Below are positions 10,371-63,563 of a DNA stretch of 64,000 nt, one piece after another. The translations under genes and the position numbers were made by a program. The notes below the pieces were generated by a model. That model saw only the letters and a list, made by a program, of their open reading frames with translations, ran no database searches and was not told the DNA's origin. The DNA comes from Astropecten irregularis (taxonomy: Eukaryota; Echinodermata; Asteroidea; Paxillosida; Astropectinidae), in assembly GCA_963971285.1 (NCBI GenBank), contig OZ020265.1, positions 3,009,270-3,073,269 on the forward strand, written 5' to 3'. Each line of letters starts with the position of its first letter. The first letter of the stretch is position 1.

Positions 10371-11532
10371 TTAGTCGGATTTGCTTTCGTCGACGTTAGA
10401 TGGCAGCGTCTCCACAGACTTCTGCTTCATCTCGGCTGAGTGTTTCTTCTCGGTATGTTTTCTTTGCCGGCGGGCTGCCACTAAGGTCAGAAGGGTGTAC
10501 AGGTAGGGATTTAGAGAGGAGTTGATGGGCAGGATGAAGACTACAATCCAGGAGTACACGTCTGGACCGATGTCCACTGCCCCGGTCTGGGACAGAATCC
10601 CCATGATGATGACCGGCATCCAGCAGGCGAAGTCAGTGCCGACTATGAGAGCCATCTTGACGGCCATCCTGATCTCCCGGTCCCGGTGGGCCGACATCCG
10701 GACCTTACTGGCCGTACGTTTGACCTTGGTGAAGATGGCGACGTAGCAGAACAAGACCACGAGGAAACAGAGCAGGTTCACGCCCAGGAACAGGATGATT
10801 GAGTAGATCCAAGCCGGCTTCTCTCCCTGGCCAACGGGGATATGTATGGTCTCATTGGTGTACCCAACGTCGATCTCATTGGTGCCGAAACTCGTCGGTT
10901 TTGTTGTCAGTGGCAGACCGATGCAGACGTCTGAGAGACCGTAGATGTCCGAATGTTCAGAGTTGACCAGGACCACGGGAGCAACGCTCACAATCAACCC
11001 AACAAACCAAACGATGGCTGCGACTACCCTGGCCGTCTTCTTCCCTATTTTGAACCGGCTGAAGGGAAACATGATGGATGCGAAGCAATCCACGCTGATC
11101 AACGTGACAAAGAAGACCGACGCCTCGCTAGATAGGACAGACAAGGCACTAGCTGCCCTACACAGTAAGCTCGACCGCCAAACACTGGCCTCCCAGGAAT
11201 ACCCGTCCCCATAATAGAAGTCAGCACCTGCTATGATGAACATATAACCCCCCATCATTAGATCAGACACGGCTAAGTTCAGGACAAAGAAGGCATGGGA
11301 CATTTTCTCCCCGCCCACCGACCTTCCACAGAACCTCCAGGCGATGACAGCAGCGTTACCGAGGAAGGCACTGGCGCCAAGGACCCACATGGACACCCTC
11401 AGGAAGCCGTTGCGAAGAAGGCTACCGCAGAGGTTGAGCGGAGGTTGTAGCTCGATCGTATGACAAAAGTCCTCTTGAAAATCATCAATCAAGGAAATAA
11501 ACTCACAGCACAGACGGTAGTCATCCACATAC
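10371..11532 (-). CDS. Terminal exon: hinge, seven-transmembrane domain, cytoplasmic tail
   Basis: The acceptor follows a pyrimidine tract at 11533-11534, and the exon runs 386 codons to a TAA at 10371-10373. The hinge begins [11 protein letters not shown], with the Cys-Cys pair typical of LGR hinges. Counting from the exon start, helix 1 lies near residues 46-67, helix 2 near 77-100 with the conserved Asp (about 90), helix 3 near 125-149, helix 4 near 169-189, helix 5 near 242-268, helix 6 near 288-312 and helix 7 near 325-347. The disulfide cysteines before helix 3 (about 124) and in loop 2 (about 203) are present, as is NPYLY in helix 7. The third-helix DRY/DRF position reads Asp-Cys-Phe, so the arginine is replaced by cysteine (codon 11085-11087). 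A basic-rich tail of about 35 residues ends the protein. The whole 7TM domain lies in one exon, as in relaxin-receptor genes. Confidence 0.93.

Positions 11533-63563: not shown

What the first reader, a model, noticed from the sequence alone, without database searches (positions are those of the whole stretch)
10371..63563. A type C LGR-like receptor with a long alternating CUB/LDLa ectodomain
Seen: 17 LDLa/CUB exons, LRRNT, four LRRs and a 7TM exon on one strand, with consistent intron phases throughout. Known: relaxin receptors have one LDLa, and snail GRL101 has many LDLa modules before its LRRs. I do not recall a CUB-rich version being described in the same receptor. CUB modules could add a second ligand-binding mode (for example to glycoproteins or complement-like proteins). 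The order reads as repeats of CUB-LDLa-LDLa, some of them missing one LDLa.
Basis: partly seen in the sequence, partly recalled or inferred. Interest (0 to 1): 0.85.

Follow-up and report, generated by a model that had tools for sequence, protein, structure and literature searches.

The report
CUB-rich relaxin-type receptor gene
This piece of an animal genome holds most of one gene for a relaxin-receptor-like protein whose outer part is stretched by alternating CUB and LDLa modules, an elaborate version of a receptor type that is already known.

Summary
All 17 LDLa/CUB exons are phase 1-1, the LRRNT is 1-2 and the LRRs are 2-2. Three CUBs pass Pfam's cut-off. Three divergent ones do not, but a low-to-moderate-confidence model of one matches CUB structures best. 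The LRR+7TM part is closest to human relaxin receptor RXFP1 among solved proteins (8e-58). The transmembrane part groups with RXFP1 against type A/B LGRs (bootstrap 100).

Two points were missed: LDLa3 carries an in-frame TAG, and the gene's start lies outside the window.

By definition (more than one LDLa) it is a type C2, GRL101-like LGR. CUB-bearing type C LGRs are already in print for Nematostella and Trichoplax (PMC9545775), so CUBs in such a receptor are not new. A six-CUB, eleven-LDLa alternating array, or a bilaterian member with CUBs, was not found in ten literature searches.

Likely working, inferred: LRRs bind an insulin/relaxin-like ligand while the LDLa/CUB array captures or positions a large or charged partner. 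No transcript, species name or eukaryote relatives were available.

The parts
63447..63563 (-). LDLa1 exon, phase 1-1
   Evidence: Pfam Ldl_recept_a 2e-08; splice sites AG|TTGAATGTG, GTG|gtgagt
62543..62965 (-). CUBx1 exon (divergent CUB), phase 1-1
61092..61205 (-). LDLa2 exon, phase 1-1 (an alternative in-phase acceptor would start it at 61256)
58435..58548 (-). LDLa3 exon, phase 1-1, with an in-frame TAG
   Evidence: six Cys kept; stop two residues before the fourth Cys
57399..57812 (-). CUBx2 exon (divergent CUB), phase 1-1
   Evidence: 36% identical to CUBx1; no Pfam match; part of profile A1
56563..56676 (-). LDLa4 exon, phase 1-1
   Evidence: Pfam 1e-08; 67% identical to LDLa2
55623..55733 (-). 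LDLa5 exon, phase 1-1
54110..54439 (-). CUBx3 exon (divergent CUB), phase 1-1
   Evidence: Pfam CUB 0.014, below cut-off
43155..43265 (-). LDLa6 exon, phase 1-1
41385..41498 (-). LDLa7 exon, phase 1-1
39163..39537 (-). CUB4 exon, phase 1-1
   Evidence: Pfam CUB 8.7e-14
30139..30249 (-). LDLa8 exon, phase 1-1
26349..26720 (-). CUB5 exon, phase 1-1
   Evidence: Pfam CUB 1.8e-07
24013..24123 (-). LDLa9 exon, phase 1-1
   Evidence: 86% identical to LDLa10
22732..23100 (-). CUB6 exon, phase 1-1
   Evidence: Pfam CUB 9.3e-17; cubilin 6.7e-13 in the PDB
21428..21538 (-). LDLa10 exon, phase 1-1
20050..20238 (-). 26-residue linker and LDLa11 exon, phase 1-1
   Evidence: Pfam 2.3e-07; linker lengths
19404..19515 (-). 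LRRNT cap exon, phase 1-2
   Evidence: CPVDCNC...C pattern; LGR4 cap aligned
18731..18802 (-). LRR exon 1, phase 2-2
17889..17960 (-). LRR exon 2, phase 2-2
   Evidence: LRR_8 2.3e-16 on the joined protein
17474..17545 (-). LRR exon 3, phase 2-2
16870..16941 (-). LRR exon 4, phase 2-2
13117..13203 (-). LRR exon 5, phase 2-2
   Evidence: aligned to an RXFP1 LRR
10371..11532 (-). hinge, seven-transmembrane domain, C-terminal tail and stop, one exon
   Evidence: Pfam 7tm_1 4.3e-27; RXFP1 3e-42

Best explanation
One gene (5' end outside the window) encodes a type C leucine-rich-repeat GPCR of the multi-LDLa (C2, GRL101-like) kind. Its N-terminal array has grown by tandem duplication of phase 1-1 exon units: three CUBx-LDLa-LDLa units, three younger CUB-LDLa units, and a final LDLa joined almost directly to the LRR cap. 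Shown here: module order, phases, RXFP1-like LRR+7TM, past purifying selection on the duplicates compared. Inferred: the short LRR domain binds an insulin/relaxin-like or related protein ligand. The array of LDLa (acidic, calcium-type) and 2-Cys CUB modules captures or orients a large or basic partner and raises avidity. Binding is passed to the 7TM domain through the LRR/hinge. With the splice sites chosen, an RXFP1-style mobile LDLa could hardly be LDLa11 (3-residue linker) but could be LDLa10 (26-residue linker). My confidence is about 0.85 in the gene and its class, and about 0.35 in the working model.
For: 24 exons in one frame with uniform phases. RXFP1 is the best of 318 matched PDB sequences (60 shown), 8.1e-58, the next being 3.5e-29; with the 7TM exon alone 3e-42 against 1e-24 for the next. 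Window+RXFP1 is split from TSHR, LGR4 and a C. elegans LGR with bootstrap 100. In the 8 module pairs that I chose to compare, pN is below pS in 8 of 8; dN/dS is 0.30-0.58 in the six unsaturated ones. No signal-peptide-like exon above chance from 20.2 kb to the window end: 1 found, 0.75 expected. Linker lengths and Cys counts. LDLa needed for activation in RXFPs, linker of 32 residues in RXFP1 (PMC4561518, passages). Proposal that GRL101 is a second IGF receptor with LDLas binding positive charges (PMC8286064, passages).
Against: No transcript was seen. LDLa3 holds an in-frame TAG. The DRY position in TM3 reads DCF, without the basic residue that RXFP1 keeps in EKY, so G-protein coupling may be weak or unusual. 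No GRL101 sequence was at hand, so the C2 placement rests on LDLa number and short LRR domain, not on a tree. Weaker in-phase donors after LDLa11 would lengthen its linker by 4 residues or more. No ligand evidence.
Confidence: 0.68

Rival explanations
1. Two genes: a secreted or membrane CUB/LDLa protein upstream, and a shorter LGR that starts near LDLa10 or LDLa11.
For: LDLa11+LRR+7TM alone would make a complete type C LGR; no transcript was seen; some introns are long and hold mobile elements.
Against: In the model 17 of 17 modules end in a phase 1 donor that fits the next. No signal-peptide exon above chance on the minus strand from 20.2 kb to the window end (phase 1 donors only). No terminal exon was noticed among the modules: LDLa10 has a donor. 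A terminal exon without a domain was not searched for.
Confidence: 0.12
2. [quoted passage not shown] the architecture is old and already known, only the repeat number differs.
For: PMC9545775 states that these two type C receptors have LDL, CUB and fibronectin type II domains.
Against: No fibronectin type II match in the joined protein, though upstream exons are missing. The review's text gives no module counts or order for them (figure not held). The similarity of CUB4-6 and of LDLa8-10 shows that at least part of the array is younger.
Confidence: 0.35
3. A decaying gene: the array or the whole receptor is losing function.
For: In-frame TAG in LDLa3 and loss of the basic residue at the DRY position.
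Against: 23 of 24 exons are open and the splice dinucleotides are intact in 24 of 24. The TAG lies in a phase 1-1 exon, whose skipping keeps the frame. The module pairs compared show pN below pS in 8 of 8, although this records past selection.
Confidence: 0.1

Closest known systems
GRL101-type (C2) LGRs, first found in Lymnaea: six LRRs and twelve LDLa (PMC8286064, passages)
   Same: many LDLa before a short LRR domain and a relaxin-receptor-like 7TM
   Different: six CUB modules set between the LDLa; GRL101 of ambulacrarians is drawn with LDLa, LRR and 7TM symbols only
[quoted passage not shown]
   Same: type C LGR with LDLa and CUB in the ectodomain
   Different: fibronectin type II not found here; counts and order not given in the text seen, so the alternating 11 LDLa/6 CUB array cannot be compared in detail
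RXFP1/RXFP2 relaxin receptors (C1)
   Same: closest solved 7TM+LRR protein, 37.1% identical over 275 aligned TM positions; LDLa before LRRs
   Different: one LDLa, ten LRRs, a 32-residue LDLa-LRR linker in RXFP1 and introns inside the TM region (PMC4561518 and PMC11863921, passages)
Ciona LDLRR-GPCRs: LDL-A repeats, no LRR (PMC2396169, passages)
   Same: lineage-specific elaboration of LDLa on a relaxin-receptor-like 7TM
   Different: no LRR; the word CUB does not occur in that paper's main text
Amphioxus Adhesion GPCRs, some with CUB or LDLa (PMC2246102, passages); LRP10/LRP12-type and Neto receptors (recalled)
   Same: CUB and LDLa modules in membrane receptors
   Different: other receptor classes, without the type C LRR+7TM part

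Membership tests
type C LGR | rhodopsin-type 7TM domain | tested here: met
   Pfam 7tm_1 4.3e-27
type C LGR | LRR ectodomain with N-terminal cap | tested here: met
   LRR_8 2.3e-16; LRRNT plus five LRR exons
type C LGR | at least one LDLa module in the ectodomain | tested here: met
   11 LDLa stretches
type C LGR | TM region groups with relaxin receptors rather than type A/B | tested here: met
   bootstrap 100 in a five-sequence tree of TM fragments; PDB ranking
type C LGR | type C hinge sequence | tested here: inconclusive
   hinge aligns with RXFP1, but a Cys before TM1 resembles TSHR, LGR4 and the C. elegans LGR
type C2 (GRL101) | more than one LDLa (definition in PMC8660763) | tested here: met
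   11 LDLa
type C2 (GRL101) | tree position with GRL101 orthologues | not testable with these tools
   no eukaryote sequence collection; no GRL101 among the rows shown
RXFP/LGR3 (C1) | phase 1 introns in TM2 and TM5 (PMC11863921; the TM5 intron in the human and starfish genes) | tested here: not met
   the Pfam 7tm_1 match lies whole in one exon, 11532-10371
RXFP/LGR3 or LGR4 (C1) | one LDLa (two in some starfish) | tested here: not met
   11 LDLa
CUB domain, CUB4-6 | Pfam gathering score | tested here: met
   52.2, 31.9 and 61.8 bits against 21.4
CUB domain, CUBx1-3 | Pfam gathering score | tested here: not met
   15.1 bits, none, and 16.1 bits against 21.4; trimmed, 2 of 3 match with best E 0.0055
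CUB domain, CUBx1-3 | CUB fold | tested here: inconclusive
Nvec-LGR4/Tadh-LGR-5 kind | fibronectin type II domain beside CUB and LDLa | tested here: inconclusive
   no match in the joined protein, but the 5' exons lie outside the window

The most novel reading that the evidence does not exclude
A bilaterian type C2 LGR that has become a two-input receptor: a cubilin- or LRP-like CUB/LDLa array binds its own large extracellular ligand (a glycoprotein, lipoprotein or complement-like protein), independently of an insulin-like ligand at the LRRs. The exon-shuffled array diversifies by tandem duplication and exon skipping, and the 7TM domain, with DCF in place of DRY, signals in a non-canonical way.
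Probability: 0.15. Interest if true: 0.72.

Novelty: new variant of a known kind. Interest (0 to 1): 0.42.

Why it matters
C2 (GRL101) receptors are orphans. A member with an expanded CUB/LDLa array says that the outer modules, not only the LRRs, are what evolution tinkers with, and makes a concrete test possible: which part binds what. The very short LDLa11-LRRNT linker and the 26-residue linker one module earlier also question whether the RXFP1 'tethered LDLa' mechanism carries over to the multi-LDLa receptors. If the species is bilaterian, it would extend CUB-bearing type C LGRs from the cnidarian and placozoan cases in print.

Tried and rejected
Chance assembly of unrelated motifs: rejected by frame, phase and splice-site order. 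Extra modules on the + strand: none convincing. A separate start upstream of the LRRNT: no signal-peptide-like exon above chance (1 hit, null mean 0.75, range 0-2, 20 shuffles; phase 1 donors only). That hit's donor overlaps the LDLa7 acceptor. The alternative acceptor inside LDLa3 just after the TAG gives phase 0 and breaks the frame (read), so it does not rescue that exon; skipping the exon keeps the frame.

Structure prediction of the 7TM exon alone was useless: pLDDT 46.4, no Foldseek hit at 0.001. The profile of CUBx1-3 found no CUB in the PDB by sequence (three chance hits at E about 0.9). Looking for stray relatives of the 7TM exon in viral and prokaryote contigs gave none. tRNA and Rfam scans of the window gave none.

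Literature: ten answered searches. Fourteen papers were opened: PMC9545775 for passages and one part of a section, the other thirteen for passages only. Of nine papers holding both 'GRL101' and 'CUB', seven were opened; PMC8256442 and PMC7217437 were not. The CUB passages shown for PMC7510291, PMC9759900, PMC11521371, PMC11863921 and PMC8286064 are journal DOIs in reference lists. For PMC8660763 and PMC7357564 CUB itself was not among the terms looked up. So 'no bilaterian CUB-bearing type C LGR in print' holds only for these searches of an open-licence library; the original GRL101 paper and the paper defining C1/C2 were not read.

Full report
What is there. On the minus strand of the window I built a 24-exon model. 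From 5' to 3': LDLa1, CUBx1, LDLa2, LDLa3, CUBx2, LDLa4, LDLa5, CUBx3, LDLa6, LDLa7, CUB4, LDLa8, CUB5, LDLa9, CUB6, LDLa10, LDLa11, LRRNT, LRR1-5, and one exon with hinge, 7TM and stop. Each exon is bounded by AG and (except the last) GT; all 17 LDLa/CUB exons are phase 1-1, LRRNT is 1-2 and the LRRs are 2-2. The sites were chosen by inspection. A later check lists other in-phase AGs for 7 of 17 modules and other in-phase GTs for 7 of 17, so a few exon ends are uncertain by some codons; the phases are not. In 11 of 11 LDLa exons the donor GT is exactly one base after the last Cys codon; with GT at 6.1% of positions this is about 4e-14 by chance.

Receptor class. With LRR+7TM as query the best of 318 matched PDB sequences (60 shown) is human RXFP1 (8.1e-58; LGR4 next at 3.5e-29). 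With the 7TM exon alone RXFP1 scores 3e-42, a C. elegans LGR 1e-24 and TSHR 3.7e-20. A maximum-likelihood tree of five TM regions separates window+RXFP1 from TSHR, LGR4 and the C. elegans receptor with bootstrap 100 (TM fragments only, four comparison sequences). RXFP/LGR3-type genes have a phase 1 intron in TM2 and, in the human and starfish genes, another in TM5 (PMC11863921, passages). Here the TM region is one exon, so it is not of that type. Type C2 is defined by more than one LDLa (PMC8660763, passages), and GRL101 has six LRRs and twelve LDLa (PMC8286064, passages). The present 11 or more LDLa and five LRR exons fit C2. A direct tree with GRL101 was not possible.

History of the array. 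LDLa2 and LDLa4 are 67% identical, LDLa9 and LDLa10 86%, LDLa8 and LDLa9 61%, and CUB4-6 55-64%. This supports tandem duplication of CUB-LDLa(-LDLa) units by exon shuffling of phase 1-1 modules. I compared eight pairs: pN is below pS in 8 of 8; dN/dS is 0.43, 0.30 and 0.58 for CUB4-6 and 0.46, 0.48 and 0.33 for LDLa8-10. LDLa2/4 and CUBx1/2 are saturated in dS.

Results against a simple reading. LDLa3 has an in-frame TAG two residues before its fourth Cys, where the LDL receptor modules often have Trp (recalled). The exon otherwise keeps six Cys and good splice sites and can be skipped in frame. It may be an assembly error, a polymorphism or a dying exon; I cannot tell. The TM3 DRY position reads DCF, while RXFP1 has EKY; Asn1.50, Asp2.50, Trp4.50, CWxP and NPxxY are present by inspection (numbering recalled). 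No start codon or signal peptide was found in the window, and no transcript was seen. The window's own genome could not be searched: eight requests did not complete.

How it probably works (inference). In RXFP1/2 the ligand binds the LRRs and TM loops, and the single LDLa, on a 32- or 25-residue linker, acts as a tethered activator (PMC4561518, passages). Here LDLa11 is separated from the LRR cap by three residues and could hardly swing; the 26-residue linker lies between LDLa10 and LDLa11 (weaker in-phase donors after LDLa11 exist). So either LDLa10 with the array behind it plays that part, or the array serves mainly to capture ligand. Veenstra proposed that GRL101 is a second IGF receptor whose LDLas bind the basic tail of IGF (PMC8286064, passages). 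The CUBs could add a second site or act as spacers that hold the LDLas in order. CUB6 keeps residues that resemble the calcium site of complement CUBs (positions recalled, not tested). I put the working model at about 0.35.

Known or new. [quoted passage not shown] Ciona has relatives with LDLa but no LRR (PMC2396169, passages). Some amphioxus Adhesion GPCRs have CUB or LDLa (PMC2246102, passages). Crown-of-thorns starfish GRL101-like has six LDLa (PMC6267866, passages). Roch and Sherwood describe cnidarian LGRs with multiple LDLa (PMC4079206, passages). What I did not find in ten searches is a type C LGR with a CUB/LDLa array of this length and regular order, or any bilaterian member with CUB.

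Noticed in passing
58435-58548 (-): LDLa3 exon with an in-frame TAG two residues before its fourth Cys, in an otherwise intact phase 1-1 exon.
   Followed up: partly
10371-11532 (-): TM3 DRY motif reads DCF, without the basic residue; RXFP1 has EKY.
   Followed up: no
31069-38497 (+): Pao-type LTR retrotransposon in the intron between CUB4 and LDLa8; its flanking direct repeats are 99-100% identical in the three aligned pieces, hence a recent insertion.
   Followed up: partly
13807-15937 (+): LINE-like element in the intron between LRR4 and LRR5: endonuclease match 3.6e-10, reverse transcriptase match 6.4e-05 that is below Pfam's cut-off.
   Followed up: partly
24524-25099: AAAG microsatellite, 144 copies.
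   Followed up: no
27585-27956 and 28511-28768: Two arrays of about 47-50 bp units whose consensus sequences look by eye like reverse complements of each other.
   Followed up: no
50132-50831: 129 bp tandem repeat, 5.4 copies.
   Followed up: no
1-6800: Very similar repeated ORF blocks (for example at 192-410, 889-1107, 2911-3129 and 5097-5315) downstream of the receptor gene, apparently a large repeat family (by eye).
   Followed up: no
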